A stretch of DNA of 64,000 nt from Amphiura filiformis (lineage: Eukaryota > Echinodermata > Ophiuroidea > Amphilepidida > Amphiuridae): assembly GCF_039555335.1 (NCBI RefSeq), contig NC_092647.1, positions 12,779,094-12,843,093 on the forward strand, read 5' to 3'. Position 1 is the stretch's first letter. Every line of letters begins with the position of its first letter. A program made the position numbers and the translations under genes. Below the pieces are notes generated by a model. That model was given only the letters and a program-made list of their open reading frames with translations, was not told the origin of the DNA and did no database searches. This document shows, piece after piece, positions 4,664 to 53,424 of this stretch.

Positions 4664-5049
4664 CTAACCTTCTGTCTTTGTCTCCACGGCATCTGCATCT
4701 GTCTCCATGTCGACACCCTTAACATCATCGTCTTTGACAGATGTCAATGGTGCACTACTGGCAGTTACTTCTGCTGCAGGTTCACTGCCTTTTGATGCAT
4801 CATCACCATGATCTCTGCTAGTTTTGTCAACATCTATGTTGGTCCCATCACCAGCTTTACAAGACTCGTCAGTAGTCTCCTTGCCAACTTCCTCATGAGA
4901 TTCCTGGGAGTCTGTTTTTGTCTCTTCTTCACTTGTTCTTCCTTCTTGGGTCTTCTTTTCCTCCACTTGTTTCTTTTTTGCTTCCTCTTCTTTCTGTCTT
5001 TCCTCACTCTCTGCTTCATCAAGCTCTTTATGGGATGCTAGCAATGGGC
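4664..5049 (-). CDS. HEPN-DED gene, coding exon 8, charged C-terminal tail
   Basis: The last coding exon; acceptor TTATTCAG, phase 1 in, stop TAG at 4664-4666. It encodes a Glu/Lys-rich coiled coil (ELDEAESEERQKEEEAKKKQ) followed by an acidic Ser/Thr tail. AAG|GTTAGA overlaps the stop and could act as a weak phase-1 donor, so further exons cannot be fully excluded. A 62-codon basic frame inside it is an overlapping shadow. Confidence 0.7.
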
Positions 5050-8000
5050 CTGAATAAGATTTGAAGAAACAATTTATTTAAAAAAATACCCCCTCCATGT
5101 GCTTTGCATATTTCTACACATTCTTTCAGTTTTTAGGGTCATGGCTTAGGATTATGGTGGGGTACACAGAATACTACTAATTTGTGTTATCCACCCAAAT
5201 TAACTTTGTTGTATAAGTGCCCTATATGCTAAAGGGAATGAACACTGAACAAACCACCTGTTCTAAAACACACAAACGTCAAACAAAAACCACACACATA
5301 AAAAAACTGAAGAAAATTTCATTTTCGTTTCAAGAAGAAACTGAAATAAAGAATTTAGAGATTGGATTTCAGAGAAAATTATCAATGTGTATATATCCAT
5401 ATCAAAACGATGCACTTGTCGGCTGCTACTTGTGTCTCATTTCACATAATAGCTATAGGAATAAACACCAGACTCATTTCAAGTGGAGGTCACTTCAAAT
5501 CATCCTCAAGTCACATGGTTTAGGAATACAGAGAACAATCCATGTGACTTGAGGATGATTTGAAGTGACCCCCACTTGAGATGAGTCTGGTATTTCTAGC
5601 TATTATGTGAAATGAGACACATGTAGCAGCCGACAAGTGCATCGTTTTGATATGGATGTACACAAATCTGATATTGCCTTGTTTTTAGATTTGACATTTT
5701 TGTGGAGCTGTACTCATTCACAAATTCAGCTCATCCTAGTTAATGCCAAGATCTGAGGCATTTAGATGATTTTCCAAAGAGCACACACATGTATAAAGGC
5801 AAAAAGTCAAAGACAGGCAAAGATATTGAAAAGAAATGCCTTGATGAAATGCTATACCTTAATTGAATTAATTCTCTTTCATGTGGAATTTACTTTGGCA
5901 GTCCAGAAATTAAATCGAAAGTTGGTTAATAACCTCTCCAGCAAACATTCTGAATGTGAATATTGATAAATTGATCTTCTTGAATTATGGTTAAACAAAA
6001 CGTACATGAGCCGCACATGAGGTCTTCAGAGTGTTCCTGAAAGAACTATACCAACAGAGCTGTCAATGTCAACATTCAATATTGTATCAAGTGTGCGATA
6101 GCTGGTTTATTTCTCAACAACATCCAACAATTTAGTCCTGTCTGGTTCGGGCATTAAAATATCCAAAAATAAAAGTTTCATATGGCACAATTTTTGGCAG
6201 AGCTCTAATTTCACTCTGGAACAACACATTGTAATTATATTTACATGTAAATTTCTCTTCTGTTGGAGACTATTATTTATCTACAGTGTCAAAGGGGAGG
6301 GGCATTTCCCCCCACAAACTTGGACTTTTCCCCCAGTTAGAACAAAAAAAAAACTTGGTGCCGCTACTGTTTACCTACAATGTACTTTTGACGTTCTGTG
6401 TGATTAAAGACAGACGTATCAGGAACCAGATCATGATCAAAAATATTATGTGTTATTAGTTTTGCAGTGTGCAGTTTCAAAATGAAGGCACTTAAAATCA
6501 AAGTGTTGAAGGAAAAATAAGTACAAATCATTTGTTTGAAAATGGTCCACTACATTACAGTGTGCGTCATGTTTTTGTGACATGGAAGAGTTATTAATTG
6601 AGGCCCAATTAATTGAGACATAATTATTTAAATGGTCTTTCAGGTGCTAATTAGTCAAAGATAGCGAGTCCTAATTTATAAGATGACATACCTGCTTTAA
6701 CATCCTGCACAGAAATGTACTCTTCACCTTCTACTTGAACACCAAAAATGTTCATTTCTGTAAGCCAGCTGCTGTTATTTTTGTTTGCTGTTATCATATC
6801 TTTGGCCGATTCTGGAGGTATTAGAAACACAACCACAATGCATCCTTCATTCAGAGCTGCAAATCTCACTTGCTGTGGTTTGAGTCCTAGCATCTGCACC
6901 AATTTCTCTCTGTACTTTTCTACATCTTGCTGTAAAAAGTGCTTCACGTCCCCTTCAATCTTAAGCTCCACAAATACATACTCATTATCTGTTACACAAA
7001 ACAACACAAAAATGTGACAGTAGACAGTCAAGTACATAAACTGGTCCCAAAAAGTAACTTACCAGGTAAGAAATTCGTCTGTCAAGTTCAAACGACAAAT
7101 CGTATTATACTGAATAGCATATGAGTGGAAGCGGTGTACATTTACGCTGAGTTTGACACCTCATTTGTCGCAAACAGATCAAAACTTTTGAAGTTATGCT
7201 CATTTGAACAAGCCTACTATCAAATTTGAAAGTTGCAGGTCCGCCCCAATGAATTCACACAATAAACAGACACATGAAAGGATGTTCAGAACTTTGATCA
7301 TTCTTCATCCTCACAAGAAGCAATAGGAAAGTTAGTCATGCAAAGAAGAAGAGGAGAGCACTGATTACACCTGTATACTGCCAACCATCTCAAGTGGTAT
7401 GAGTGCAACTTTCATTCCAGTGGATAGGTTCGGTTAAATAAGCATAACTTCAAAAATACTCATCCGTTTGCAACAAATGAGGTGTAAAAATTCGCGTCAA
7501 TTAACACTGCTTCCACTCATATCCCATTTAGTGTAACACAATTTGTCGTTTGAATTTGACAGACAAATTTCTTACCTGGTAAGTTTCTTTTTTGGAGCAG
7601 TTTATAAAGCCATCAGTAATATCAGAGAAGATGACCAAACAACAAAAAACCACAGTTCACAAAGCATATGCACAGGCAGGTATCACATGTGATGCGATTA
7701 AGCGTCATCATGCGAACAGTCACATGGTCACGAAAGCTTGGCGGGCAAGCCACTCCCCGTGGCAAGGTAGGCCCGCACGTGTCTGGCACCAAGGGTCGGT
7801 GGTTCTAAACCGCACCCGAGAAAAAAGTTTTCTCTTCTTCTTTGTTTCTTCCTTCCTTCTTTCCTTCCCCCTCGCCAAAAAGCAGCTAGGGCGTTAGGGT
7901 TAATATAGCCTTGTAAAAATTTGTTATAATAATTATTAAGGGGTACTACACCCTGTGGTAAATTGTGACTATTTTTGCATTTTCTCAAAAATAATAACAC

Positions 8001-11000
8001 ACTGGTAACAAGAGTTATGTATATTATTGGGGCAAGGAATCCAATTACTACACTGAAATTTCAGTGACCCAAGACAAGCGGTTCAGTATATATGATAGGA
8101 AATGAGGTACACCCTAGCGGTACCTTATTTCTTGTCATAAATAACGAACCGCTTATCTTGGGTCACTGAAATTCCAGATAACTTTTGTTACCACTGTGTT
8201 ATTAGTTTTTGAGAAAAATGCAAAAATAGGCACACATTTATCGAGGGGTGAAGTACCCCCTTAACAACATTTTACTCATAGTTAGGCTATCTTTTGAATA
8301 AAGTGCTCAATCCCAAAAGGGAGAGCGTATAAAAATTCAAAGAACAGACCTTCCAGAATAGGTAGTCGTTACTCTGAGTTTCATGCCTAAAAGGCAATCG
8401 TCAGACGACACGATGAAATGCTTTGAGTGGACATGGAACAATATCCTGGAAACGGCAATAGCTCATTTGCATGAGCCGCACTGTTATGTAAATAACGTAT
8501 TATTATTCAAATTTGCTCCTGGTCTTATAGTCGGCGCTATTCATAGCATGCAGGCGGAGCCTGTCCGAACTAAATGGAAGTGTGCAGGCATGTTAAATTG
8601 ATGCGTAATATCACCTTTCTGTGTTATGTATAAGCTAGTATATTTCGTGCACCTTGGTTATATAAAACAGAATGTAATATTCAATGTATTGAAGTGTAGG
8701 ACATTTGACATATAGTAGCCTTGTTATTGTCTGAAATGCAGAGCTCTGGCGACTTAAGCTGGGCGATGTATGCAACGTGTCCGTCCCTGGCTGCATGTAG
8801 AATTCAATTCCAATAATATTGAATTATATCCGATAAATTTGAAGCAATCACAATTGGCCTGCATTTAAAAGAAATGTTAATTCCTAAAGATATATAATCG
8901 AGCATCACGATGTCATTCAATCATGTTAAAGCAGCTATAGATCTTCAAAAGTTCAAGGACATGGGTTACGTAATTTCCACAGCACGCGTTTGATGATAGA
9001 CCTATGAATAAGGGATAAAGTACTCTTCATTTATGATCCGCTACTGAACAACGCCGCCATCACTGGCACAATAATTAAGGATTAAACCTACAAACTTACA
9101 TCCCTGTTAGTGTTAGCTCATGTTCATGAGAATGAGCCTTGGGTAGGCATATGCTTTATATTACACAATGAATCGGTGATTCTGATATTTAGACTCGGGT
9201 ATTTTAGGCCGAGATTTGTTTGTGGGTAGGGCCCTAGCCTATACTTGCTTCCTTTTAAAATTTTGTTTTTATTTCCTATGATTATGATCACACGCGTTTC
9301 TCTCGATCGGCATAGAATCAATCACAGATAGATTTGTCAACAGTCTGCACTGACACGTAGATAGTTGGCGTACATCATGCATCAAGGTGTGCAATGACAC
9401 AGTTAGTAGATCCTCTTTTGTTCTGGGGTCTGTACAAATGTAGCTGAAGGCGTCGACCTATCTGCTCACCTATGCCCTAAAGCAGACTGTGACCAATCAG
9501 ATTTTTGGTCCATTGGTGCTGATATACATAACTAAAATGGCAATATGATGTAAATTTCTTTACATACTTGTAAAAACATTACTTCACGCCCATAGCCGCA
9601 AGCACCAATATGTCTGATTATTGCAGATTGATAATTTTTTAATGAGAATAGGAAAGGAATACAAACACACATACAATACCCCCGTACAAGCTAATATATC
9701 GCCATGTTGAAAGGTCAGATGTCATGTCAAAGGTTTTATTGACTTGAAATACTACTTGTATTTCATACCTTGCATCTGACACGCGCTTTCATCGCATTAT
9801 TGACAGCAAGTCCTTATTTCAACATTACTTTTGTAAAAAGTCATTCCCGACTCAAACTAGTAGACTTTCTGGAAAAAACAAATCACTGGTGCCTGATGGG
9901 AAATACTAGTGCGCCATCACCGGATTGCTCCCTGCTCTGCTAGCTGGCGCTCTTTCAAGCTTGCTACTCGCATTGAACAGGCAGAGTTCGCAAAACTAAC
10001 GGCGTCGTTATTTGCCAACCCTAATTAAACATGATCAAGGGATCGAAATTAATTATTCATAACCGATCGATAACTGGCCTCATTTTCTAACGAGCAAACC
10101 AGCGGGGTTTGTCATAGGTTTGCGTTGGGAATAGAACAACCGTGAATTTAGTGTCACCCCTTGGAGTGGACTACCATCTCTTAGGAATGTGAAAGAATAT
10201 ACATTCCATGGTGTCAACACAGCCAAAGCAAGTCTATCCCAGAGAGAGTAACGACTACCTATTCTGGAAGGTCTGTTCTTTGAATTTTTATAATAATTAT
10301 TATAAATATCCACGCCATATATTTATAGGATTACAGATGAATGAGCAAACAGATAGATATGAACAGAAGGAAAAAGAGCTGTTTGGTTTGTGGGGAACAA
10401 TTGGGTCCCAAATAAAACATAAAAGGGATGGCAGTCCCAAATAAATGATTCCTAAAAAGTAACACCCCCAAGACATTTCGGTATAATCCAATAAGGCGGT
10501 TCTCGAACCACGAGTCTCGCCTGCTTTCGCGATCGCCTGCTTTTACGATTACTTTTGGTAGAAGTAAATGAACCTGCAACAACCCATGGCGATTTGCCTG
10601 TTCAATTTGAGCTTGATTGGACCAATATTGGAATTTGACCTTTGATCCCTAAATTTTGGTGGGTCTCGGCTGGGCACAATTACCTGGCTGATGGTGACTG
10701 TACCCACCAAGTCTCATGCCCATCCGACAATTTTACTAATTTGACCTCAGATGACCCCTACTGACCCCAAAATGACCTTCCAAAATTGGGCTCTAAATGT
10801 TGACTGTACATGTCATGCCCATACAAGTTTTTAGTCATTTGACTTCAGATGACCTCTGAGTGACCTCAGATGACCTTGCAATGACTGTCCAAAAATTTGG
10901 CTCTAAATGATGACTGTACCCACCAAGTTTCATGCCCTGTGAGTTTTTAGAAATTTGACCACAGATGACCCATGGGTGACCGCAGATATCCCTGAAATGA

Positions 11001-14000
11001 CCTTCCAAAAATTTGACTTTAAATGTTGAGTGTCATGCCCATGGATGACCTTTGATGATCCCAAAATGACCTTCCAAAAATTTGGCTCTAAATGTTGACT
11101 GTACCCACCAAGCTTCATGCCCATACAACAGTTTTTAGTAATTTGACCTCAGATGACCCCTGGGTGACCCTGAAATGCCCTTCCAAAAATTTGACTCTTA
11201 ATGTTGACAGTGACCACTTAGTGTCATGCCCATACGACAGTTTTAGTAATGTGACATCAGATGACCCTGAGTGACCTTGGATGACCCTGAAATGACTTTC
11301 CAAAAAACCCCGAAATAATCTTCCGAACATTTTACTCTAAATGTTGACTGTACCCACCAAGTTTCATGCCCATACAACAGTTTTTAGTAATTTGACCTCA
11401 GATGACCCCTGGGTGACCCCGAAATAATCTTCTGAACATTTGACTCTAAATGTTGACTGTACCCACCAAGTTTCATGCCCATACGACAGTATTTAGTAGT
11501 TTGACCTTAGATGACCCCTGGGTGACCTCGGATGACCCGAAATAATCTTCCGAACATTTGACTCTAAATGTTGACTGTACCCACCAAGTTTCATGCCCAT
11601 ATAACAGTTTCAAGTAATTTGACCTCAGATGACCCTGGGGACCTTAGATGACCCAAAATGACCTTCCAAAAATTTGGCTCTAAATGTTGACTGTACCCAC
11701 CAAGTTTCATGCCCATACGACAGTTTTAGTAATTTGACCTCAGATGACCCTGGGTGACCCCGAAATGCCCTTCCAAAATTTGACTCTTAATGTTGACTGT
11801 AACCACTAAGTGTCATGCCCGTACGACAGTTTTAGTAATTTGACATCAGATGACCCCTGGGTGACCTTGGATGACCCTAAATTAGCTTCTGAAACTTTGA
11901 CTCTAAATGTTGACTGTACCCACCAAGTTTCATGCCCATATAGCAGTTTTAGTAATGTGACCTCAGATGACCCCTGTGTGACCTTGGATGGCCCCGAAAT
12001 TACCTTCCGAAACTTTGACTCTAAATGTTGACTGTACCCACCAAGTTTCATGCCCATATGGCAGGTTTTAGTAATTTGACCTCAGATGACCCTTGGGTGA
12101 CCTCGGATGAACCCGAAATAACCTTCCGAAAATTTTACTCCAAATGTTGACTGTACCCACCAAGTTTCATGCCCATACGACAGTTTTTAGTAATTTGACC
12201 TCAGATGACCCCTGGGTGACCTCGGTTGACCCCGAAATAATCTTCCGAGCATTTTACTCTAAATGTTGACTGTACCCACCAAGTTTCATGCCCATACGAC
12301 AGTTTTTAGTAATTTGACCTCAGATGACCCCTGGGTGACCCCCGAAATAATCTTCTGAACATTTGACTCTAAATGTTGACTGTACCCACCAAGTTTCATG
12401 CCCATACGACAGTTTTTAGTAGTTTGACCTTAGATGACCCCTGGGTGACCTCGGATGACCCCGAAATAATCTTCCGAACATTTGACTCTAAATGTTGATT
12501 GTACCCACCAAGTTTCATGCCCATACGACAGTTTTAGTAATTTGACCTTAGATGACCCCTGGGTGACCTCGGATGACCCCAAAAGAATCTTCCTAACATT
12601 TTACTCTAAATGTTGATTGTAACCACCAAGTTTCATGCCCATACGACAGTTTTAGTAATTTGACCTCAGATGACCCCTGGGTGACCTCGGATGACCCCGA
12701 AATAATCTTCCGAACATTTGACTCGATGTAGCACCCCAACAGAGACATTTTTGACATAAAAACCCGTTTTAGACATTTTTTTGAAAAAATGCTTCCTTCA
12801 CCCTAAAAAGGTGGTTTTAAATATTCAGTTTCCTATCCTTTTGTACATGAGAGACATTCTTCAAAGTCTTTTTTTGGCCTAATAACTTGGCCTACATGCC
12901 CGAAATTGATATATATAATGCGCAATATAAAACATTATTTCATTAAATTTTGACCCCCCCCTCAACTTCGAGTGTGGGAGGGGGCCACATGGGGGGGTGC
13001 TAATGAACATTTGACTCGATGTAGCACCCCAACAGAGACATTTCTGACATAAAAACCCGTTTTAGACATTTTTTTGAAAAAATGCTTCCTTCACCCTAAA
13101 AAGGTGGTTTTAAATTTTCAGGTACCTATACTTTTGTACATGAGAGACATTCTTCAAAGTCTTTTTTTGGCCTAATGACTTGGCCTACATGACCGAAATT
13201 GATATATGTAATGCGCAATATAAAAACAATATTTCATTAAATTTTTGACCCCCCCCCCAACTTTGAGTGTGTGGGAGGGGCCACATGGGGGGGGGGGTAC
13301 TAATGTGCATCCTCTCGTCATACTACCCCCTACCACATTATGTTGACCGTACCCACCAAGTATCGTGCCCATATGACAGTTTTTAGTCATTTGACCTCAG
13401 ATGACCCCTGGATGACCTTGGGTGACCTTGACGCACTAACCAATACAAACTTGTTCTGTCTGGGGTGAAGATGCACCCACCCACCAAGTTTGAAGAACGT
13501 ATGCGACCCCTAGTCTCCGAGAAAATAGGTTTTTGCATTTTATGCATAAATTATGCAAATTAGGTACTTAATTACCATATTTTTCGCTGAAAATCGAATC
13601 GGGTTGAGATCCTCTGGTCATACTACCCCCTACGAATCCCCCAGATACAGCTCCACAAGGCGGATTTCTTCAGATTTCCAACCATATTTGTAGAATCGTT
13701 CCGCATAAATTATGCAAATTAACAACTAAATGCGCATACTTTTCAGCGAAAAACTAATCAGGTGATCAGCAGATGTGTATCATAGCTGACACCCGGTTTC
13801 GTTACCATGCGCCCAACGGATCTTGAGATAGTCTGTCCCCAAACTCCGCTATCAATTTGCGCTGATTTGCGCATAAATTATGTTAATTTGCATATTTTTC
13901 CCGAAAACATACGGTTACGAGCAAACTTGGATACCCTTCCTCCCACCAAGTAGCGTCGCCGTAAGTCTTACGGACCCAGATACAGCTCGGACGGACACAC

Positions 14001-17000
14001 ATACATACACACACACACCCCCCCCCCCACACACACACACACACACGCACGGACAGACAGAAATAGTGATTACTAAGTCCCATCCTGAACAAAGTTCAGG
14101 CGAGACAAAAACGGATTGATCGATTCTCTTCTTTTAAAGTTTGGAACATAGACTGATTAGTTATGCATCGATTGAGCAGGTTTTGTTGCTACTTTTTATC
14201 ATCTTCATTGCAAAATACAGCCATTCATGAAATTTTCGACCAAAAAAAAGTTGCATTTTTCTACATAGGCTTTTTATGCTTCAATTTGTGTTTGACCATT
14301 TTTTCCCATTTAGTGAGTATTTTAATCAAAAAGAAGCATCTTTAATTTAATTAAATTTAAGCTTTTCCTGATTTAGGTGTCTCACATTCAAAAACAGTTT
14401 TTATGGTTCAGTGAATAATTACAATGAATGCTGCAGCTTATTAATGTCTTTCAATAATGAAAAGGCCTTCCTTCGTGTGAGATGGCTTCCAAGCATGTTC
14501 TTCTCTGCTGTTGGTCAAGCTGGTTCCCCGCATGCATGCTGCAGGATTTGCTGCAATGTCCTTTAAGGTGGTGTTGTCCCTCAATTGTACGCTTGTAAGA
14601 AGTTGAGTCTTGATAACAGCCACCCATATAATGATTTTTGAACCATTCAAGGAATGACCAATGAATTAAGTGTACTGGGATCCAGCATAAAAGATTTAAC
14701 CAAAAATCTGTTGGTCCATTGGTTAAATTAATCAATGAACACAAGATTTATCATTGAAGTTACAGTTGTACCTTCCTAATAAATTTAATTAGAATGAAAA
14801 ACTTGTTAAATTTACGCATGTTTAATGCATACAAAGAGTCAATTTAGAAAAGTATGCCTCCATGATTTCTCACTAAAACCATAAAACATGTTTGAAATGT
14901 GTAAAAATTAATTCATGAACATCTAATTCTAAACTTAAGTTATTTTGATAAAAAAACAAAAATATAAAGAAACATTCCTTTTTGATTAATTTGCTTAAAG
15001 TGGAAGAGGTCTGAAACCAAACGTGATGCATAAAAAGCCTATGTAGAAAAGTACAACTTTTTTTGGTCAAATGGCAAAATTTCTCAGTGAAGATGGTAAA
15101 AGATAACAACTAAACCCTGTTCACTTGATAACTAATCAGTCTATGTTCCAAACTTTAAAACAAGAGAATTGATCAAGCTGTTTTTGGATTATACCAAAAT
15201 GTCTAAGGGGGGGGGGCTTACTTTTTTTGTACCGTTTATGTTGTCTATATGGGTAGTGAACACCATATAGAGTGCAGCTATGACCAAGTTTGATATCAAA
15301 TTGGATAAATTGAGTGCAATGCACATATTGGTTCAACTTTTGCAAAATAGCATCCCCTAAATGCAGTCTCTGTTTTACGCAGCCTCCATTTCAGCTTAAA
15401 ATTTATTCAACCTACCTGGGTCTCTCTTGACATATCTGATGCATAATGGTTGCCGTTCTTGTATTGCCTTGCCATATTTTTTAACATGTTCCACAGAATC
15501 ATCATCCTCTCCATATTGTAGGGTAAGTATCATGGTTATGAAAACCAAATTATTGCAGTTAAACAATTTGAAGCTCTCAAGGCACTTTATTAAACTGTCT
15601 ACATCATGGATTGCATCAATTCTCTTTTGATGAATACCTGTGTCTGTTGTGAAAGTAAGTAAGACTTAAGTAAGTAAGTGAATGTTGGATGTCATCAATT
15701 CCAAACTTTTTGAACAAATCATCAGTGGCGTAACTAGGGGGCAGGGGGAAACGTGCCCCGGGCGCCACCAAAATTAATTAGTGGTAGGCCTTATTTGTCC
15801 AAAATTTTGTGCTCCACGCGTAATTGTTTCAAGAATGGGGGCGCCATTATGTATGGGTGGGGGGTAGGGGTGCCAATTTTGTTTCTTGCCCCGGGCATTA
15901 CCAACCCTAGTTACACCACTGCAAATCATATAATAAAAAATGTGTCTGGCTATAGTTTGAGATAATCATCATCACCAAATATTTCTTTGAAAATATGTTC
16001 TCCTAAGTCAAACTGTTTATATTTTGAAAGCCATTATAATAGTATACTAATTTTCAAATGGTATAACTGGTGTAATCAGCATGAATCCATGGGTAACACG
16101 CATGAAAGTATCATAAACTTCATTGGTTCCTATTATCTTTCAATCCAATAAATCTTGCACACTAGAGATTCCCTAAATATGTTCTTCTTACCCGACAAGT
16201 CAAGACGAATAAAAACGGGACAATGTTACTCACAAGTCAAGAGGAGAATTTTGTTGTGTTTTTGCTGGAATCGACCATTAACACTTATGCGTTGTGCATG
16301 TACATGTATGTGCATTAGCAAATACATGCGTTGTATGTGCATGAATAATTTTTGGGGACAAATAATGTTTTAATGTTCTGACACTAAAATCACTTATAAT
16401 TTTTAAGTCCCGGTACTCTTGCAGCAAAATTAACAGTTTCAGTTCAGGTTTAAGCGCAACTTTGGAATCTGCATTTTTTTTTTGCATCAATAGCCCAAAT
16501 ATTTTTGCCAAGGTGATCCATTGAATGAAAAAGATGCAGATTCCAAAGTTACACTTAAACCCATTGAAAATGTTAATGTTACTGAGAGTACCATGTGATG
16601 TTAGTGTTATATAGGCTCAGCCTTTCAATTCAACTTTGGAATCTGCATCTTTTTTTCACAAACAGGGTTCAAGGGGCTATTGACACACATACAGAGTGTA
16701 TCAAAATGATTGCTACCCATCAATATGCAGTGAGCATGACCAGGGACAAGTGATTTGTGCAGAAAAAAATAGCCAATTGCGCGGAGATTGCGCAGAACTT
16801 TTTTTCAGTGCAAATCATGTATCCCTGCCTATAGGAAAAAAATAGCCAATTGCGCGGAAACAAATTTCCACTCAAATCACTTGTCCCCGAGCATGACCAA
16901 GACCGCCACATCAAAATATAGTATAACATCCATCTAATTTGTTCATTTATGTTATAAATGGTTTGTAAGGTATTAATCCATGCAGAACATAACTTTTTTT

Positions 17001-20000
17001 TGTTATTTCAATTTGAAAATTTGGAACAATTCTGGAATTCTGGATTTCCGCAAACTATACCCCAAACTCTGACCGATCCTAACTCTAATCTAGCACACAG
17101 GGTGTGTGGGGCAAACCAGAATTATGCAGGAAATTTGGATGCAGGCACAGATTTTTAGTTACTATCTTCCAACAGCGGGTATGTTTTGTGATGTGTCTAA
17201 AAATTGTTTTAAAACTCACCAATTTCTAATAGAGTTTTCATATCCACAACATCTGCTTTAGAAATGCGTTTCTTTAGATTCCTTTTCAACATATTGTAAG
17301 CTAGATTTGATGGCATCGCATCAGCACCTTGTGGTAGCTCTTCCACTTCATTTGTTGCAGATTCTGCAATGTGAAATTGTAAATTAAAATACAAGTTATC
17401 TCTTTGGTTTCTGCAATTAATTGTTTTAAAAAGAGGCATTCAGAGATTTTTGAGTTTAAAAATTTGTTCCCATAATTTGTTTTTATGGAGACTAACGCCC
17501 TGCGGGGCAACCCGAAAATACACAATTTATGCCATGGACCGATCGGGACCGACTCGGACCAGAAGCGGATCAGATTGAATTTTTTTTAAATTTACAGATC
17601 GGGGTGGATCGCCGGGTCAGGGCGGATTGGGGTGAGTTCTCGCTGAGTTGAAATGGACCGGGGTTTTTACTATCGGCTTGATGAGTCAAGATCAGTGATG
17701 AGTATCGCCAGAAGTATTACACAACAGCGGTGTTGTTTTCACCAATTTCTTTATTCACAGTAATATTTCACTTCAGGTGAGTGCAAGTGCCCGTAATATA
17801 ATTTTATAAATCCATAATTATTATGAGTATGGGTGAGTGCATACATGTAGATCATTCTTAGTTTTCATTCAACATTGATTGGATCCGATTTGAAACTTCG
17901 GATTTGGAAAAACCAGAATTGATCGGAATGAGGTTTTAAAACATCATTTATAACACATTTATTAGTTTGTTCCAAAAATGCTAAGATTATAATTTTGACA
18001 AATTACTTGACTCACCAGTTTCTGCTGCAGCTTTGGATCCATTAGCATAGTAATTCTGTATAATATATACATCTCCACGTCCACCTCTTTGTAGCTCTGT
18101 TTTTAATTCTTTTATCATCGCCTCTGTAATAGTCATGCTACGGATCTGGATATTGAAAATTCAAAAGAATCTCACATGTTCTTTAACTGCAACAATTTAG
18201 TATAAATGTAAGAAATAATATTTTACATTATGTACTCCCAATTCCAAAAAACAGCAATCAATTGAAAAAAAAAGTACAGCATTTGACCTATTTAATAACC
18301 AGACACTATAAGTTGTTCACCTCCGGGGCCCTTACATGTATCAAAGACTTGCTCATCTGGATATCAAATTAATCACTGGCCATTTTATTTGTCACTGATG
18401 TATACATGAAAGATAAATAATCATTTTCAGGTTTTCATGACTTTTTTTAACATTTTCCTAAATTTTCAGCAACAATTTCCTAATTTTCAAGAGTCAACTT
18501 ATATTATTCCAAAAATACTTAAATAGCATACTTTGTGCTAAAAATCTAGAATCAGATTGAGAACCTCTGGCCATGCTACCCCCTACCAATTCAAGTAACG
18601 TCACTGTACTCCATACGTGTATGTATCTTCAGATATTGGGGGAAAATAAAAGCCTTTAGCCACACATATAACTTAAGCAAATCAGCTACTTAATAAGCAT
18701 ATATTTTGTGCTGAAAATCTAATCAGGTTGAGAACCCCCGTACACCCCCACATGTAATCACCTCCAAACGTGGACGCTGTTTAGGACTATATAATATGCA
18801 ATCATGGTCGTCTGAATCTGTACTCATTCGACATACCGAGGTCGTTTTCTGTCATTTTGTTTGTGTATTTTTGTGTGTATGGAATTTAACCTAGCAACTG
18901 CGGAAGTTATATTTCACATACGATAGAGAATGTTATTCGCAAATACATTAGACATAAAATTGGGCTCATTTGCAGACCTCCTTGAACCAAGGATGGTCCC
19001 CCATTGCAGAGTGGTCCACGGTTTAATTGTGAAGTGCGAGTGTGTGTCCTGTCTACTGGCATACACCTACAAGATCCTCATCATGTCTAAACACAGGGTT
19101 TGGGTAAACCACATGCCACATTAAATTTGCCAACTTCTCATCAGCTTTGAGGCACTATCTTCTTTTCTTTGGCTTAATCACAATTTAAAGACACAATGCC
19201 ACCTTAACATTTCTACAACTGTACCTCTTTCAGTTCGTCACTGAGTGTGTTTGCTTCTACCTCCGTGAAATGACCCAAGTCTATCATCAGGTTTACAAAG
19301 GCCTCAATTTGTTTGAAATATGTTTCAAGTTCAGTTGAGTCCACCTTAAGTTGATGTCTAACGGCTAAATGATCCAAATCACACCGTATCTCAAATGCCT
19401 GTATAATATAATAAAGCAACAAACTTTTTTTTAAAGTGAAGGTTATACAAAACTAATTAAACAAGCAACTAATACCATCTTATGTACTTACATGTAAAAT
19501 TACTATTGTTGTTTATTATCTTTTGATGGTGAAAATAAACTTGAGAACTTAAGATGACAAGTTCTACCAAGCAAGTCAAGTAAATCTATCATTGCTACAT
19601 GCATTATTAGGCCTGTTATCGACACATGATTTCTAATTCTAATTGGTGACAAAAATATGACAATCGACACGTTTCGAAACTCGTAATTAGATTTAAAAAT
19701 GCTGAAAAAAGTTGATAGATAAGCTTAAAATCACGCCGATATGAGTTACGATTGTTCGTTCTACTTCCGGGTTCAGGTCAACTTTGGGAGGTAATTTTCG
19801 ACTTTCCAATGTAAATGTGATTCGGACAAAATAGCATGGAAATTTCATTTTTTTCTTTTTGATATGTGTCGTAAAGTGTTGAAAAAGGACTTTATTTGTG
19901 TTGAAAAAGGATTTATTTTAACATGTTGGATTTAGGGTCATAACGATAATACGTCAGTCGATAACAGGCCTATGCATTATACATGTATAATATATGTACA

Positions 20001-22279
20001 TTGTATAATACAAACCAAGCCTGCTTGTAACCAGTCTAATCTCTTTCTAGTGCCTCCATGAGTAATAAATGTACAGGTGGTGCCATTTCGCAAACACATT
20101 AAACAAAGAAATAATTGCTTTGCTTCTGTTCCTCATCATTAAGCCTATGTATTGTAACAAAATTTAGTTTTACCAAAAACTATATACAGTACATGTACAT
20201 CATGTACATGTAGCAATTGCGATTATAATTTTCAAGCACATAATATGTTATCTATTATAATATTATCTGTTCACTACCTGCTGTATGATCTTCCCATATT
20301 CTTCTTGTTTCTCTTTATCTTCAGGTTCAGGGTTGAGCTGTGGATTTAAATACAATACAATCATGTTCAAAACAGAAATTTCAAAGCTTAAAATCAAATT
20401 TAATCAATTGAAATGCAATAATCATGCAGGTGCTCAATTTCATCAAACTTTGCAGGAATCAGCTAGTATAATAAGGTTTTCAAAATGCACATGGATGAAA
20501 ACCATTTGTGACATGATCAAGGGGAATGAGTCGGATGTCGCTAATATTGTTTTTGAGATATTGGCAAAAACAGTATTCAAATTCTTTTGCTTTATATTGT
20601 TTTTAGCCATTGATAAATTGCTCACAACTTGTTAACCAGATGTCTGATTTTGATGGGGTTTGCAATCAATATGTAGCATTCGCAAACTGCCAGAAAATAC
20701 AATTGGCGACATGTGACTCACTCCCCTTGAGAAATTATTGGTTCTTAGTCTTGTTGCTGCCATGGTGCTTGTACAGGCCAAACCAACTGACCAATAGGAG
20801 TCATCATTTGACCGGGTCAGTCATCTAGTCATTCATGTTTTGGTTCCATTCAGTCATACAAAATTTTTCTCACCCACCTCTCCCAATGAGAAAGGGTAAT
20901 TAATTGGTGGTTAATAATGAAATTATATTTAATCTTGTATCTATTAAGATCGTGCTGCAATCATTTTTGTGAGGAGTATGAACGTTAATATTGCAAAAAG
21001 GAAAATATAGTACCAGGCTGCAGTTTTTATCCTTGGGCTTTTGAAAATTAACTTTCTCTCACATTCATTCTTTCAGTCATTGCAACTTCCAAGTCATGAA
21101 TACATGCATGTACCTTGAGGCTTCTCCCGGGAATTTTGCAGATGGAGCAACTGAATGTACGCACTTATCATAGAATGAAAAAATTTTATTGTTTCATCAC
21201 AAATTTTGCACATTCTTTTTTTTTAAAGCTTAAAAGCTCTCATGACAGAAGGTGAATTTCTCTACAATGACAACACAACTAACAGAAGCAACACTTTGAA
21301 GTATTGTACACTCATCTATGTGATATCCTGTATTTGTTGCAGGCATTGTGTATGATAGAGAAATAATTACCTTTGTTACGATTTTCTCTAACTTCTCCCA
21401 TGACCCACAGCATACGCTGTCATCTTTCAGTATCTGCTGGACCTGATGTTCTCTCCTTTCTTTACACACCAACAATGGACCAAAGTTCTTGATAACAAGT
21501 AGTAAGCTTCCTTCATCAAATTCATCGAATGAAGCCATCTGATGAAACTTCTTCAACTTATCCTTTGGTATTTTGAAGACAAATGCTTTGGCAATTTGAA
21601 GAGGATCCTTGTGGAATTCAAAGAGGATCAGATTTTCCCAATTTATATTTATCTTTTTTTTGCCAGACGAATACTGGTTTATGGCTGCTTTTACAGAATC
21701 TACCCACAGGAGACAATTGTCACAGTACCCTTTCTTTTCCATTGTGGGTCCCGATTGCTTCGTATCAAGTTTGCGACACACTTCGGGAGTTTCACAGGAA
21801 CCTATAACAGGTTTGACCAGATGATGCCATTGCTTGACAACTGCCTCTACACATGGGGCCGCCTTGAGGGTCACTTCCACCAAAGCTCTCTTAACTCTCA
21901 CAAAGTTTTCTATCGTTCCATCTTTGGCACCTCTGTTTATGTCATTATTATTTCCTACACCTGCTGGACTTCGCTCAGTTGTTGTGGAGGTGACAGTAGA
22001 ACCAGTTTCGCTACATGTACCTCTGCTATTGTTGTCAGTGCCTCGAGAGTTGAACGTAGAATTGGGTGTGTCATCTGCATGTACATCTTCCTCTTCAATG
22101 CCACCACTTGAGTTTGATGGTGCATCATTTATCTGGATGTCATTTAAGGAATTCTGCATCTCAGTGTCACCAAACAAGTCCAATGTATCACTTTTGTCTC
22201 CATCTTCAGATTGTGGTGAGTTGTCAGAAGAATCTGAGTCACTTTCATCACCCGGTTTTCTCCACATAGAGGAACTCAT
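4664..22279 (-). CDS. HEPN-like / DED-like multidomain protein, 775 aa, eight coding exons
   Basis: I assembled this gene from eight minus-strand exons whose GT-AG sites and phases all agree: 22279-21371, 20337-20278, 19398-19225, 18145-18016, 17363-17220, 15643-15416, 6988-6692 and 5049-4664. Together they give 2328 nt. Residues 1-120 are acidic and Ser-rich. Residues ~122-380 resemble the DZIP3/hRUL138-type HEPN family: CDNC at 186-189, INWEN from 212, KDPLQIAKAF after it, and a later VRHQLK where active HEPNs carry an R-x4-6-H motif. Residues ~443-535 resemble a death effector domain (ISKADVVDMKTLLE, then a predicted helix around LIKCLESFKLFNCNNL). Residues ~549-647 form a small alpha/beta-like domain seen in invertebrate immune-type proteins. 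The tail (648-775) is Glu/Lys-rich coiled coil, then acidic. Known DED and HEPN proteins act in apoptosis, innate signalling and RNA/ubiquitin pathways; the role here is inference. Upstream coding exons are not excluded. Confidence 0.75.
5388..5665. mobile_element. long hairpin (fold-back MITE) in an intron
   Basis: The left arm around CAAAACGATGCACTTGTCGG is matched by the right arm around CCGACAAGTGCATCGTTTTG. The arms run about 130 bp with few mismatches and meet near 5530. It lies between coding exons 7 and 8 of the HEPN-DED gene. Confidence 0.85.
6692..6988 (-). CDS. HEPN-DED gene, coding exon 7, alpha/beta-like domain
   Basis: A 297-bp exon, phase 1 to 1 (GTGTAACAG acceptor, GCAG|GTATGT donor). 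It forms one self-contained module: a strand (YVFVELKIEGDV), a helix, a strand (RFAALNEGCIVVVFLIPPES), a helix, and a strand ending EGEEYISVQDV. I recall this fold from NLR- and TIR-like proteins of lancelets and echinoderms, but cannot name a Pfam entry with certainty. Confidence 0.75.
7049..7593. mobile_element. MITE with ~150-bp terminal inverted repeats
   Basis: The left end (AACTTACCAGGTAAGAAATT) and the inverted right end (AATTTCTTACCTGGTAAGTT) match well for over 100 bp; further in, CATATGAGTGGAAGC pairs with GCTTCCACTCATATC. The centre has no protein. It lies in the 8.4-kb intron of the HEPN-DED gene. The ends contain ACCAGGTAAG, a good donor consensus. Confidence 0.85.
7735..7830 (+). 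repeat. tRNA-like SINE fragment
   Basis: GGTTCTAAACC resembles a tRNA B box, preceded at tRNA-like spacing by GTGGCAAGGTAGG as a possible A box, and the 3' end is AT/T-rich. The cloverleaf is not intact, so this is a SINE-type relic, not a tRNA gene. Confidence 0.45.
7936..8264. mobile_element. TTAA-flanked MITE, GGGGTACTACACCC family
   Basis: TTAA sits on both sides. The inverted ends read GGGGTACTACACCC (left) and GGGGTGAAGTACCCCC (right). The arms (AAGACAAGCGGTTC against GAACCGCTTATCTTGGGTCA) fold into a hairpin. Relatives lie at 22448-22716 and 59891-60221. Confidence 0.8.
8265..10600. other. intron of HEPN-DED gene, no further feature
   Basis: Several open frames of 60-80 codons occur without conserved features. 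An octamer-like ATTTGCAT inside GCTCATTTGCATGAGC at about 8461 is the only notable short motif. I see no gene. Confidence 0.5.
10620..12711. repeat. tandem array of ~109-118-bp units rich in TGACC half-sites
   Basis: About 17 imperfect units share ATGTTGACTGTACCCACC, AAGTTTCATGCCCATA and TTTGACCTCAGATGACCCC. Early units (10620-11300) are more degenerate; those from 11340 are close to uniform. Starts of GTTGACTGTACC at 11343, 11452, 11570 and 11685 show the period. Each unit carries up to four TGACCT/TGACCC hexamers. The array lies wholly in the 8.4-kb intron of the HEPN-DED gene; open frames across it are repeat artefacts. Confidence 0.9.
12712..13306. repeat. two tandem copies of a 293-bp unit
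   Basis: Copy 1 (12712-13004) and copy 2 (13005-13306) both start GAACATTTGACTCGATGTAG and end in a G-rich tract before CTAATG. Mismatches are few. GAACATTTGACTC also occurs in the upstream 115-bp units, so the sequence arose inside or next to that array. Confidence 0.9.
13330..13430. repeat. residual unit of the half-site array
   Basis: GTTGACCGTACCCACCAAG, TTTGACCTCAGATGACCCC and GGATGACCTTGGGTGACC show this is a displaced array unit on the far side of the 293-bp tandem pair. Confidence 0.75.
13431..14110. repeat. dispersed repeat with TTATGCAAATTA words and (AC)n tract
   Basis: GCATAAATTATGCAAATTA-type words recur three times. GATCCTCTGGTCATACTACCCCCTACGAAT is repeated in altered form at 18560-18590. 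An AC microsatellite occupies about 13999-14047, followed by AAGTCCCATCCTGAACAAAG. It looks like the end of a dispersed retroelement-like repeat of unknown class. Confidence 0.55.
15416..15643 (-). CDS. HEPN-DED gene, coding exon 6, second half of DED-like domain
   Basis: A 228-bp exon, phase 1 to 1, with donor CCCAG|GTAGGT. Two acceptors six bases apart (exon from 15643 or 15637) both keep the frame, so two amino acids may be optional. It encodes RIDAIHDVDSLIKCLESFKL, FNCNNLVFITMIL and a charged helix ending RYVKRDP. The pattern fits DED helices 3-6. Confidence 0.75.
15723..15921. mobile_element. hAT-like MITE with 8-bp target duplication
   Basis: The ends are CAGTGGCGTAACTAGGG and CCCTAGTTACACCACTG, a common hAT-type terminus. 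CAAATCAT occurs immediately on both sides (15715-15722 and 15922-15929). The element is 199 bp with no transposase and lies in an intron of the HEPN-DED gene. Confidence 0.9.
16450..16655. repeat. inverted and direct copies of AACTTTGGAATCTGCAT
   Basis: The word occurs forward near 16457, inverted (ATGCAGATTCCAAAGTT) near 16535 and forward near 16630. This gives a small hairpin-like arrangement in an intron. Confidence 0.6.
17220..17363 (-). CDS. HEPN-DED gene, coding exon 5, first half of DED-like domain
   Basis: A 144-bp exon, phase 1 to 1 (ACATTGCAG acceptor, ATTG|GTGAGT donor). It encodes a linker and then NMLKRNLKKRISKADVVDMK, which matches helices 1-2 of a death effector domain. The domain continues in the next exon across a phase-1 intron. 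Confidence 0.75.
18016..18145 (-). CDS. HEPN-DED gene, coding exon 4 (aa 382-424)
   Basis: A 130-bp exon, phase 0 in and phase 1 out (TATCCAG acceptor, ACTG|GTGAGT donor). It encodes a helix (ITEAMIKELKTELQ) and a Gly-rich turn (RGGRGD). It is too short to stand out as an open frame; I recognised it from its splice sites and matching phases. Confidence 0.7.
18530..18760. repeat. second copy of the dispersed repeat at 13.6 kb
   Basis: GAACCTCTGGCCATGCTACC and the following CCCCTACCAAT match GATCCTCTGGTCATACTACC at 13610. A further AATCAGGTTGAGAACCCCCG follows at 18720. The copy is shorter and lacks the AC tract. Confidence 0.5.
19225..19398 (-). CDS. HEPN-DED gene, coding exon 3 (aa 324-381)
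   Basis: A 174-bp exon, phase 0 to 0, with acceptor ATTATACAG and donor AAAGAG|GTACAG. It starts AFEIRCDLDHLAVRHQLKV and continues with a long amphipathic helix. The DLDHLAVRH stretch sits where HEPN proteins usually carry the RN...H active motif; the Asn and the normal spacing are missing, so RNase activity is doubtful. Confidence 0.75.
20278..20337 (-). CDS. HEPN-DED gene, coding exon 2 (aa 304-323)
   Basis: A 60-bp exon encoding LNPEPEDKEKQEEYGKIIQQ. The acceptor is ATCCACAG and the donor CAG|GTAGTG, phase 0 on both sides. It is charged and helical, and links the two parts of the HEPN-like region. Confidence 0.7.
21371..22279 (-). CDS. HEPN-DED gene, coding exon 1 (aa 1-303)
   Basis: This is the longest exon. 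The start ATG is at 22279, seven bases inside an acceptor (TTTTTTTAG, exon from 22286), so a noncoding or upstream coding exon lies further out. The frame stays open through those seven bases. It encodes the acidic Ser/Asp N-terminus and the first part of the HEPN-like domain (CDNCLLWVDSVKAAI, ININWENL, DPLQIAKAFVF). The donor is AAAG|GTAATT, phase 0. Confidence 0.8.
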
Positions 22280-22447
22280 GCTGCATCTAAAAAAACAGAA
22301 TGGGGGGGGTTACAAGAAATACATTATTTTATTTTATGTGATGTATGTATGGGCATAGTAGTCAAGTTAGCTCAATCGATAAGGAGTTCGACTATAAATC
22401 ACTGCGCTTTTTTTTTTTTTTTTTAAATGCTTAAATAGCAAATTTGT

Positions 22448-22716
22448 TATCAAATGAAGGTGGCACTATATACACCCCTTGATAAATTTGTGACCATTTT
22501 TGCATTTTTCTCAAAAAATAATAACACACTGGTAAGATAGGGGCAAGGAATCCAGACTTTACTACACTGGACTTTCAGTGACTCAAGACAAGCAGTACAT
22601 TATTTATGATAAGAAAAGAGGTACTGCTATAGAATGTACCTCATTAAAACATAATAAACCACTTGTCTTGAATCACTGAAATTTCAGTGAAGTAATTGAA
22701 ATCCTTGCCCCTATAA
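22448..22716. mobile_element. diverged copy of the GGGGTACTACACCC MITE
   Basis: It shares TTTTTGCATTTTTCTCAAAA, AATAATAACACACTGGTAA, GGGGCAAGGAATCC and the TTTCAGTGACTCAAGACAAG hairpin arm with 7936-8264. The outer ends are worn and the right end is truncated. Confidence 0.75.
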
Positions 22717-22929
22717 TGGTCGTATGCCATGAACTGGGTACGCTAAAATGGGGGAGCCATTACAATTCAACTTTTTTTTTCAAGTTTCATTCTAGTTTAT
22801 TCTTTTAAGTACTTGACTGTGTTCAAAGTATTTGGGATCAATTTATTGCTAGAAGTCTGCTCTAAAAATAAAACCATTTCTAGTCCATTTGGACTATTTA
22901 TATTGTGAGAGTTATAGTAAAATGAGCCA

Positions 22930-27540: not shown

Positions 27541-27741
27541 TAGATCTTTTAAGTAGAGCTTTAAAGACTTCATTCACTGTTGTAATGTAGAAAACCATGA
27601 TGACCTGATGAGTGCTTGTTTCTCCCATAGACTTTACATGGTGCCGTATCCCAATTTTGCACCACCCGGCGTAAATGGCACAAAAACCAAAATGACCGCA
27701 ACTATGAACTTTACCGCGAACAAAGCAAGATTGTCACAAAG

Positions 27742-29127
27742 TTGATTAATAATGCAAAATCTGCTTATTATAAGAAAGAACTTGACACAGCAGACACGAA
27801 GCAAGTGTTTCAGACACTCAATACTCTGTTGAACAGTGGCTGTAAGATCCTCCCTGCCTGTGAGTGTTTGAGTCAGCTGAGCAATGATTTTGCAATTTTC
27901 TTCAAAAACAAAATTGCTCTGATTCGTGATAGGCTTGATGGTCTCGAAACTGACACAACCGCTAGTGAAAGATTATTTCCGGATGAAAACCCAAGATTGT
28001 GCTCTTTCAACCAAGTTTCTGAAGAGGAAGTATCAAAGATCATCATGAATCTTCCCAATAAACAATGCACTTTGGATGTTTTCCCTACTTGGTTGCTAAA
28101 ATCAGTTACTGACACGCTTATCACTCCACTTACGAGCATTATAAACAGGTCCCTTGTTCTGGGAAGTTTTCCAATGAACTTAAAATCAGCCATTGTGACA
28201 CCTATAATCAAGAAACCAAGCATGGACTCTAACGAACTCAAAAGTTACAGACCTGTTAGCAATATAAAGGTCTTTTCAAAGATCATGGAGAAAGTAGTTC
28301 TTCCTCAGATCAGATCTCATCTTGTTATTAATGACTTAGAGGAACCATTTCAGTCAGGATATAAACCATCGCACAGTACTGAAACAGCCCTACTCAGAGT
28401 AAGGAGCGATATTCTGAATGCCATCGACAGGAAGCATGCCGTCTTCCTGGTCCTCCTGGACCTACATGTAAGCGCGGCTTTCGACACGGTGGACTACCCT
28501 ACTCTTTTCAACAGACTAACCAGCGTTTATGGCATTACTGAAACAGCGCAGGCATGGCTTGCATCTTATCTCACCAAAAGAGATCACCAAGTTTGTGTGT
28601 CAGGAGCCATGTCTGAAAGCCTTCCTCTGCTTTATGGACTTCCACAGGGGTCTTGCATCAGCCCGGGAATTTTTACAATGTACACTTATCCAATGGGAGC
28701 AATCATCCGCCGTTATAACATCAATTACCATCTTTACGCTGATGATGTGCAACTTTATATTGAATTTGACCCTAAAATTCCGGGTGATGCTGCTGTTGCA
28801 GCTTTTAAGCTCCAGGCTTGTATTGCAGAACTTAAGAAATGGATGAGCACTAACAAGCTGCAGCTAAACGAAAGTAAAACAGAGTTCATGGTGTTAGCTT
28901 CAAAACACAATCTGAAAGACCTTTCTACTGTCACTTTGAATTTAGATAACACCACCATCATCCCTTCAACTGTCATTAAGAACCTCGGTGTCAAGTTTGA
29001 GTCTGACATGTCAATGACTGCTCAGGTTGCTTCCATATCTAGCTCCACTAACTATCATCTCCGCAATATCAACAGAATCCGTCGTTTCATTGACAAAGAC
29101 ACTTGCGAGCAAGCAGTCCGGCGCTAA
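27742..29127 (+). pseudogene. LINE reverse transcriptase fragment, 461 aa frame
   Basis: This open frame holds most of the reverse transcriptase. A KSYRPVSN motif lies near residue 168, the palm motif is LLDL...AAFDTVDY, then GLPQGSCISPGIF and LYADDVQLYI with the catalytic Asp pair. The usual LLDLSAAFDTVD is interrupted by two extra residues (His-Val) from a six-base insertion at about 28463-28469. Coding sequence continues upstream to at least 27665 (RRKWHKNQNDRNYELY). At ~29125 the frame shifts to 29103-29633. Confidence 0.9.
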
Positions 29128-29633
29128 TAACATCCAGATTGGACTACTGCAACTCTCTGCTTATTAACATCACAGCCAAAGACATACAGAAGCTTCAAAA
29201 GATCCAGAACCGCTCTGCACGCCTCATTTTCCGGACAAGCAGGCGTGAGAACACTTCTCCTCTGATTCAAGAGCTGCACTGGTTGCCAGTCAAACAGCGA
29301 ATCATCTTTAAGACCCTTCTGCTTGCTTACAAGTGCCTGCACAATCAAGCCCCATTTACCTCACTGAACTCCTTCACATTTACATCCCGTCTGTCAACCT
29401 GCGTTCCGGGCACGACCAACCTCGCCTTGTTGTCAACAGAACTTTCACTACTCAAGGGGATCGCGCTTTCACAAATGCTGCCCCAATGTTATGGAACACT
29501 TTACCAAATGTCATCAGAAACTCTATCACAGTTGCGTCTTTCAAGAGCCAAACAAAAACTCATTTATTCCCGGACTAATTTCTTCCCCCATGTTTCATGC
29601 TGCTCTGTTTATTTGTTTAAATTAGTAATGTAA
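29103..29633 (+). pseudogene. LINE C-terminal region after a frameshift
   Basis: It continues the retrotransposon protein in another frame: SRLDYCNSLL, IQNRSARLIFRTSRR, ELHWLPVKQRIIFKTLLLAYK. This is the usual post-reverse-transcriptase module of CR1-, L2- and Jockey-like elements. A second shift near 29350 moves the tail (APMLWNTLPNVIRNS) into the frame 29333-29578. Confidence 0.85.
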
Positions 29634-31989: not shown

Positions 31990-52154
<20,165 letters not shown>

Positions 52155-52777: not shown

Positions 52778-53424
52778 CCTTGTGAACTGCAAGAAGACTA
52801 GGCTAACGATGCAGTGGAGTCGTGTGTAGTTTGGCAAGGATGAATGTAAGCTGCACAGCCCGACAAGCACAGATGCCACTTTTCAGGTTTTAGCGAGTTC
52901 AAATTCCAGTGTTTTTTATTTATTTTCAGTAGTTTGTTTTGCCACAGAAGGACAAAGGTATTTAAAAGGGGACGGTGTGAAGTTAAGCATTTTGTGTGCA
53001 CTTTGCTGGGAGTGATGCAAGTATTATGTATAATGCATTCTACATTATCATTATTATTTATTGTTGCTTTTTTGGATTTTCACACAAAAGTGTACATTCT
53101 GAGCATTGTGTCAAATGTGATTGTGCGCATAATTCCTGAAAGCTCGGACCTTGTTGACTGGTTGCTTAGCAACAACAATGCGTAGCATGATTTCTTTAAT
53201 TTATTTCGAGTTGCGTGTAGTTTACAATGTCATAATGCATGTGGAATACTCGTGGTCCCACTCTTTACTTTCAAATTGTACATGTCATGTCTGAGAATCA
53301 AAATAAAGCAACAGTAGTAGGCATTATACATAATTATGCTGGTGACAAAAAATACAAAATAAAATGTATACTGGTGTTTACCAATTGGAGCTGATGGTCT
53401 GCGTAATTGACGAAAAAAGCAATC

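What the first reader, a model, noticed from the sequence alone, without database searches (positions are those of the whole stretch)
4664..22286. Undescribed HEPN-DED protein architecture
Seen: eight exons with agreeing phases give 775 residues. Known: DZIP3-type HEPN and death effector domains each occur in immune and death-signalling proteins. Inference: the combination HEPN-like, DED-like, small alpha/beta domain and acidic coiled coil in one chain is not one I recognise. It could be an adaptor linking RNA or ubiquitin sensing to caspase-8-like recruitment.
Basis: partly seen in the sequence, partly recalled or inferred. Interest (0 to 1): 0.85.

Follow-up and report, generated by a model that had tools for sequence, protein, structure and literature searches.

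The report
HEPN-DED-TRADD-N immunity-type gene
An eight-exon animal gene that probably joins an RNA-cutting domain to two cell-death signalling domains; it looks like one more member of a described, highly variable family of marine-invertebrate immune proteins, not a new kind of protein.

Summary
The gene model holds: on the MINUS strand, eight GT-AG exons with agreeing phases give 775 residues; exon 4 lacks independent coding support. The domains differ from those named. Residues 122-264 match Pfam DUF4559/CXorf38 (6.8e-8), a described HEPN family, not the DZIP3 type. Four cysteines fit its inserted Zn ribbon. The only Rx4-6H in residues 111-400, R328-CDLD-H333 (exon 3), aligns with the HEPN motif of (recalled) human CXorf38, so an active RNase is plausible. 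The 'small alpha/beta domain' is a TRADD-N domain (exon 7, NCOA6_TRADD-N, 7.1e-6, above cutoff). The DED is plausible by position and a weak profile match (7 of 2000 shuffles reach it) but has no Pfam hit. DED-TRADD-N proteins, some with HEPN, are described in oysters and cnidarians; echinoderms and hemichordates have TRADD-N expansions (PMC8195603). CXorf38-type HEPN fused to DEATH/CARD was described in 2013 (PMC3710099). The exact CXorf38-HEPN + DED + TRADD-N chain was not named in the text I read. Verdict: new member of a known kind; function predicted, not shown. No structure prediction could be completed.

The parts
21371..22286 (-). exon 1: disordered acidic/Ser-rich N-terminus (aa 1-118) and the N-terminal part of the HEPN domain; ATG at 22279
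   Evidence: 303-aa exon matches PF15112 DUF4559 6.8e-8
21488..21916 (-). DUF4559/CXorf38-type HEPN, profile-matched part (aa 122-264)
   Evidence: Pfam 32.8-35.8 bits in three pieces, cutoff 27; not listed when all 775 aa were scanned
21713..21796 (-). four cysteines C162, C168, C186, C189 (Cx5C-x17-Cx2C), candidate Zn ribbon inserted in the HEPN
   Evidence: cysteine positions; Zn ribbon described for CXorf38 in PMC3710099
20278..20337 (-). exon 2 (60 nt, phase 0-0, aa 304-323), with E315xxxK319 that fits the Ex3[KR] feature of HEPN
   Evidence: 11 of 3000 null pieces as coding-like; feature from PMC3710099 section 6
19225..19398 (-). exon 3 (aa 324-381): C-terminal part of the HEPN
   Evidence: 0 of 3000
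19369..19386 (-). Rx4H catalytic-type motif R328-C-D-L-D-H333
   Evidence: only Rx4-6H in aa 111-400 and BLAST-aligned with RNEIMH of recalled CXorf38; 6 of 2000 shuffles of exons 2-3 score as well
18016..18145 (-). exon 4 (aa 382-424), linker; least certain exon
   Evidence: 611 of 3000 null pieces as coding-like
17220..17363 (-). exon 5 (phase 1-1); first part of the DED-like region
   Evidence: 0 of 3000
15416..15643 (-). exon 6 (phase 1-1); rest of the DED-like region (aa 443-535 spans exons 5-6)
   Evidence: 58 of 3000; DED profile best place aa 449-512, 7 of 2000 shuffles as good; no Pfam hit
6692..6988 (-). exon 7 (phase 1-1): TRADD-N domain, aa 549-647
   Evidence: PF13820 NCOA6_TRADD-N 7.1e-6 (26.3 vs cutoff 22.5) and PF20694 TRADD-like_N 7.9e-5 (22.8 vs 23.7)
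4664..5049 (-). exon 8: charged, acidic C-terminal tail and stop
   Evidence: 39 D+E and 18 K+R of 128 residues; 0 of 3000

Best explanation
The gene encodes an intracellular immunity/cell-death protein of the TRADD-N class of marine invertebrates: a CXorf38-type HEPN RNase domain with an inserted Zn ribbon, then a DED-like death fold, a TRADD-N domain and a disordered acidic tail. Shown here: the exon model, HEPN-family and TRADD-N profile matches, an Rx4H motif and four ribbon cysteines. Inferred: TRADD-N holds its neighbours inactive; on an invader or stress signal the death fold assembles with like domains, which brings HEPN domains together and lets them cut RNA, either self RNA (to kill or silence the cell) or invader RNA. 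The TRADD-N step follows the model proposed in PMC8195603, RNA as target follows PMC3710099; that HEPN RNases act as dimers is recalled.
For: PF15112 match in three pieces, and the model is the CXorf38 family (recalled human CXorf38 scores 262.9 bits). Rx4H retained and aligned with CXorf38. TRADD-N match above cutoff. Order DED then TRADD-N, with a HEPN upstream, is described for C. gigas and HEPN N-terminal to DEDD2-type TRADD-N for cnidarians. CXorf38-type HEPN fused to DEATH, CARD, NACHT. Exons 5, 6 and 7 are all phase 1-1, which would suit exchange of the DED and TRADD-N modules.
Against: PF15112 was not listed in the scan of all 775 residues, where PF13820 also fell just below cutoff (22.2 vs 22.5). 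Residues 255-400, which hold the Rx4H, match no Pfam family, and about 45 extra residues precede the motif. The residue after R is C, not the usual N, D or H. The DED has no Pfam hit, hhalign gave it 1.3 % in another register, and it lacks RxDL. Direct comparison of exon 7 with TRADD and DEDD2 alone is weak (54 of 2000 shuffles as good). No structure, transcript or relative was obtained.
Confidence: 0.58

Rival explanations
1. A non-catalytic adaptor: the HEPN only binds RNA or protein, and the DED and TRADD-N recruit other effectors.
For: Cys in place of the polar residue after R and no Pfam support for the C-terminal HEPN half; PMC3710099 allows non-catalytic HEPN domains; classic TRADD is an adaptor.
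Against: R328 and H333 are both present and align with CXorf38's motif.
Confidence: 0.2
2. Two genes joined by error: a CXorf38-like HEPN gene (exons 1-3 or 1-4) and a DED-TRADD-N gene (exons 5-8).
For: No profile match spans the exon 3-5 link; exon 4 has no coding support of its own (611 of 3000).
Against: Exon 4 has good splice sites and the phases agree; HEPN joined to DED-TRADD-N has precedent. Poly(A) signals do not help: 29 in the gene body, 34.7 expected.
Confidence: 0.12
3. A nuclear regulator of the NCOA6 type in which the TRADD-N serves transcription rather than immunity.
For: Exon 7 scores best with the NCOA6 model; acidic tail.
Against: PMC8195603 treats death-fold-TRADD-N fusions of that clade as immunity proteins and says NCOA6 itself carries no conflict-related domains.
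Confidence: 0.05
4. A decayed or silent copy that makes no protein.
For: No transcript data; long repeat-filled introns.
Against: No stop or frameshift in 775 codons and all splice sites intact.
Confidence: 0.05

Closest known systems
DED-TRADD-N proteins of marine invertebrates (Kaur et al. 2021, PMC8195603), above all the Crassostrea gigas set with N-terminal HEPN RNase, immunoglobulin repeats and DED-TRADD-N, and cnidarian DEDD2-type TRADD-N with N-terminal HEPN
   Same: HEPN upstream, then DED (Crassostrea) and TRADD-N in one chain
   Different: Here no immunoglobulin, WD40, macro or PARP domain was found; the HEPN is CXorf38-type, a word absent from that paper's main text; its source tables were not read
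CXorf38-family HEPN proteins (Anantharaman et al. 2013, PMC3710099)
   Same: DUF4559 profile match, four ribbon cysteines, Rx4H; described fusions to DEATH and CARD
   Different: TRADD-N is not among the listed partners; about 45 extra residues before the motif; Cys after R
DEDD2/FLAME-3 and TRADD
   Same: Death-fold domain and TRADD-N in one chain; PF20694 recognises both (recalled sequences) and, just below cutoff, exon 7
   Different: No HEPN; exon 7 scores better with the NCOA6 model; DED here lacks a PF01335 match
RNase L (recalled)
   Same: Possible mechanism: assembly-activated HEPN-type RNA cutting
   Different: Different HEPN family, no ankyrin 2-5A sensor seen; analogy only

Membership tests
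CXorf38-type HEPN (PF15112) | match to the family profile above cutoff | tested here: met
   32.8-35.8 bits vs 27 in three pieces; profile positions 6-134 (or 8-134) of 305 only; not listed in the 775-aa scan
CXorf38-type HEPN (PF15112) | Zn ribbon inserted in the HEPN (PMC3710099) | tested here: inconclusive
   C162, C168, C186, C189 are suitably spaced; metal binding and fold not shown
CXorf38-type HEPN (PF15112) | Rx4-6H motif | tested here: met
   R328-CDLD-H333, only one in aa 111-400, aligned with recalled CXorf38 RNEIMH; 6 of 2000 shuffles score as well
CXorf38-type HEPN (PF15112) | polar residue (mostly N, D, H) right after the R | tested here: not met
   C329; PMC3710099 calls this typical, not invariant
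CXorf38-type HEPN (PF15112) | RNase activity | not testable with these tools
   needs an assay
DZIP3-type HEPN (PF18738) | match to the family profile | tested here: not met
   not listed at E up to 10
Death effector domain (PF01335) | match to the family profile | tested here: not met
   0 families for aa 438-548 and no DED hit for aa 400-660; controls FADD and recalled DEDD2 hit it
Death effector domain (PF01335) | similarity to a small DED profile | tested here: inconclusive
   best place aa 449-512; 7 of 2000 shuffles as good; hhalign 1.3 %
Death effector domain (PF01335) | RxDL motif (recalled) | tested here: not met
   absent from aa 431-548
TRADD-N domain | match to a TRADD-N profile above cutoff | tested here: met
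   PF13820 26.3 vs 22.5 for exon 7 and 23.7 in a 261-aa piece; 22.2, just below, in the 775-aa scan
TRADD-N domain | tiny residue + Ser (sometimes Cys) in the beta2-beta3 turn | tested here: inconclusive
   G597-C598 lies before a hydrophobic strand, but the small alignment did not pair it with TRADD Ser67
TRADD-N domain | RRM-like fold | not testable with these tools
DED-TRADD-N immune proteins | death-fold domain beside TRADD-N with variable flanking domains | tested here: inconclusive
   TRADD-N and flanking HEPN met; the DED itself is not confirmed
DED-TRADD-N immune proteins | lineage-specific expansion in the genome | not testable with these tools
   no whole genome held; no second copy in the 64 kb by tblastn

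The most novel reading that the evidence does not exclude
A one-chain, death-fold-switched RNase: DED assembly, rather than a small second messenger as in RNase L, would pair CXorf38-type HEPN domains and turn on RNA cutting, with TRADD-N as the lock. This would give the human CXorf38 family, whose molecular function is unknown, a testable mode of action.
Probability: 0.25. Interest if true: 0.6.

Novelty: new member of a known kind. Interest (0 to 1): 0.33.

Why it matters
It adds a CXorf38-type HEPN to the partners of the DED-TRADD-N pair and so links two published predictions that, in the texts I read, have not been joined. Human CXorf38 is called largely unknown in function in 2025 (passages of PMC12196990). 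A natural fusion suggests what that family may do: RNA cutting under death-domain control.

Tried and rejected
Rejected: DZIP3-type HEPN (no profile hit). Rejected after a check: my first reading, made before any alignment, that the HEPN had lost its catalytic motif; BLAST placed R328/H333 in exon 3 opposite RNEIMH of recalled CXorf38. Looked for and not found: further domain exons; 10 minus-strand ORFs, nine in introns 5-6 and one beyond the stop, and one more ORF of intron 6 gave no Pfam match above cutoff; shorter ORFs were not scanned. Led nowhere: relatives by close-match scans, 0 confirmed in viral contigs (exon 7; HEPN part of exon 1) and 0 in genome contigs (exon 7), both collections without animal genomes; NCBIfam (3 pieces), PADLOC (2), PHROGs (2), 0 families each; PDB by sequence: best E 0.35 for the DED region, for exon 7 one chain named Hax3 at 1.4e-4 with no stretch passing on its own, taken as chance, 0 for the HEPN region; poly(A) signals uninformative; Rfam 0 and tRNA 0 in the window. 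A dsRNA-apoptosis paper, PMC11251625, was searched for passages: HEPN, RNase L and TRADD do not occur in it. Structure prediction never completed.

Full report
Observation. The gene lies on the minus strand. I read the sequence and joined the eight exons: every intron is GT-AG, introns 1-3 are phase 0 and introns 4-7 phase 1, and the product from the ATG at 22279 is 775 residues, with the stop ending at 4664. An in-frame stop lies upstream at 22312. As an independent check I scored each exon's codons against stop-free intron pieces of up to 60 codons, training on exons 1 and 7 (exon 1 on exon 7 alone, exon 7 on exon 1 alone): 11, 0, 0, 58, 0 and 0 of 3000 null pieces reached exons 2, 3, 5, 6, 7 and 8; 171 of 3000 reached exon 1; 611 of 3000 reached exon 4, so exon 4 rests on its splice sites and on being needed for the phase change.

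N-terminal domain. Pfam gives DUF4559 (PF15112): 35.8 bits on a 263-residue piece, 32.8 on exon 1 (residues 122-264) and 34.6 on the last 189 residues of exon 1, cutoff 27; 0 of 2 shuffles of residues 119-303 give the family. The family was not listed when all 775 residues were scanned; I take this to be HMMER's filtering of a long, biased sequence, which is inference. A recalled human CXorf38 sequence scores 262.9 bits with the same model, so the model is the CXorf38 family. PMC3710099 (passages; section 6) describes CXorf38 as a HEPN family with an inserted Zn ribbon, predicted active, seen in vertebrates, Saccoglossus, Branchiostoma, Ciona and Nematostella, with fusions to dsRBD, NACHT, ankyrin, CARD and DEATH. 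Here C162, C168, C186 and C189 could form a ribbon, and the only Rx4-6H in residues 111-400 is R328-CDLD-H333 in exon 3. The stretch of residues 319-359 aligns with the RNEIMH segment of recalled CXorf38; 6 of 2000 shuffles of exons 2-3 score as well, and of 60-residue windows along the protein the best are those starting at 301-316. The N-terminal stretch alone does less well in the same pairwise test (69 of 2000). Residues 255-400 match no Pfam family, and about 45 extra residues precede the motif; PMC3710099 reports inserts up to 60 residues in certain HEPN families. The residue after R is C rather than the usual N, D or H; E315xxxK319 fits the Ex3[KR] feature of that section.

DED-like region. 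Residues 438-548 match no Pfam family and no PDB sequence credibly (best E 0.35). A profile of seven DEDs (FADD checked against PDB, six recalled) has its one reported match in the 775 residues at 449-512, at only 0.9 bits; on the cut-out segment it scores 5.9 bits and 7 of 2000 shuffles do as well. hhalign on the single sequence gave probability 1.3 % in another register. The RxDL motif (recalled) is absent. The strongest argument is contextual: it lies right before a TRADD-N domain.

Alpha/beta domain. Exon 7 alone encodes residues 549-647 and matches NCOA6_TRADD-N (PF13820, 7.1e-6, 26.3 vs 22.5 bits) and TRADD-like_N (PF20694, 7.9e-5, 22.8 vs 23.7); in the 775-residue scan the scores are 22.2 and 18.7, below both cutoffs. 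0 of 2 shuffles give either family. Controls: recalled DEDD2 and PDB-checked TRADD hit PF20694, and TRADD hits PF09034. G597-C598 resembles the tiny-plus-Ser (or Cys) turn described in section 8 of PMC8195603, but a small alignment did not pair it with TRADD Ser67, and a two-sequence TRADD/DEDD2 profile gave little (54 of 2000 shuffles as good).

Known context. Of PMC8195603 I read the abstract, sections 8, 10, 11, 12 and 13 and passages. It describes death-fold plus TRADD-N units with variable flanks in marine invertebrates; a C. gigas expansion with N-terminal HEPN RNase, immunoglobulin repeats and DED-TRADD-N; cnidarian DEDD2-type TRADD-N with N-terminal HEPN; DEDD2-clade expansions of 18-23 copies in echinoderms and 22 in hemichordates; links of DEDD2-clade genes with retrotransposons; and a model in which TRADD-N holds its neighbours inactive until a signal. 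Literature searches: 'HEPN'+'DZIP3'+'death effector domain', 0 papers; 'TRADD-N'+'HEPN', 4; 'DUF4559', 2, seen as a listing; 'CXorf38'+'HEPN', 1; 'HEPN'+'death domain'+'sea urchin', 3, two listed; 'DEDD2'+'TRADD-N', 1; 'DED-TRADD-N', 1. I saw no description of this exact chain in them, but I did not read all of them, and the library holds open-licence papers only. PMC9646362 (passages) describes large expansions of DZIP3-type HEPN proteins, often with NACHT, in pearl oyster, a related theme. PMC7159879 (passages) first reports bacterial TRADD-N.

Mechanism. Most likely an RNase effector under death-domain control: TRADD-N as lock, DED as assembly module, HEPN as RNA-cutting head. Shown: the parts above. 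Inferred: every functional step. No result here supports caspase-8 or ubiquitin in particular.

Limits.

Noticed in passing
27631-29124 (+), with a second frame 29094-29630: Reverse-transcriptase ORF (RVT_1, 3.3e-31), about 5 kb upstream of the gene's 5' end. PMC8195603 notes retrotransposons near DEDD2-clade TRADD-N genes, but a chance neighbour is as likely.
   Followed up: partly
11307-12724: Minisatellite in intron 6: 118-base unit, about 11 copies at 11418-12724, 88 % matches; also readable as a 466-base period.
   Followed up: no
7036-7605; 5385-5667; 8328-10292: Inverted-repeat elements in introns 6 and 7 (arms 181 nt at 83 %, 71 nt at 94 %, and 48 nt at 100 %, the last about 1.9 kb apart), which look like foldback or DNA-transposon remnants.
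   Followed up: no
8023-8250 and 22473-22717: Two related copies, in opposite orientation, of one dispersed palindromic element: one in intron 6, one just upstream of exon 1 (arms I4, I5, I7).
   Followed up: no
15638-15643 (-): Exon 6 has a second possible acceptor six bases in (ACACAG|GTATTC, sequence) that would keep the frame and drop two residues.
   Followed up: no
52850-53182 and 58530-58859 (+); 38614-39060 and 40909-41274 (+): Pairs of ORFs that share long, similar stretches, probably copies of dispersed repeats; not identified.
   Followed up: no
37080-37652 (+): ORF with a sub-cutoff DUF6451 match (1.8e-4, 21.8 vs 28 bits), perhaps the tail of another retroelement.
   Followed up: no
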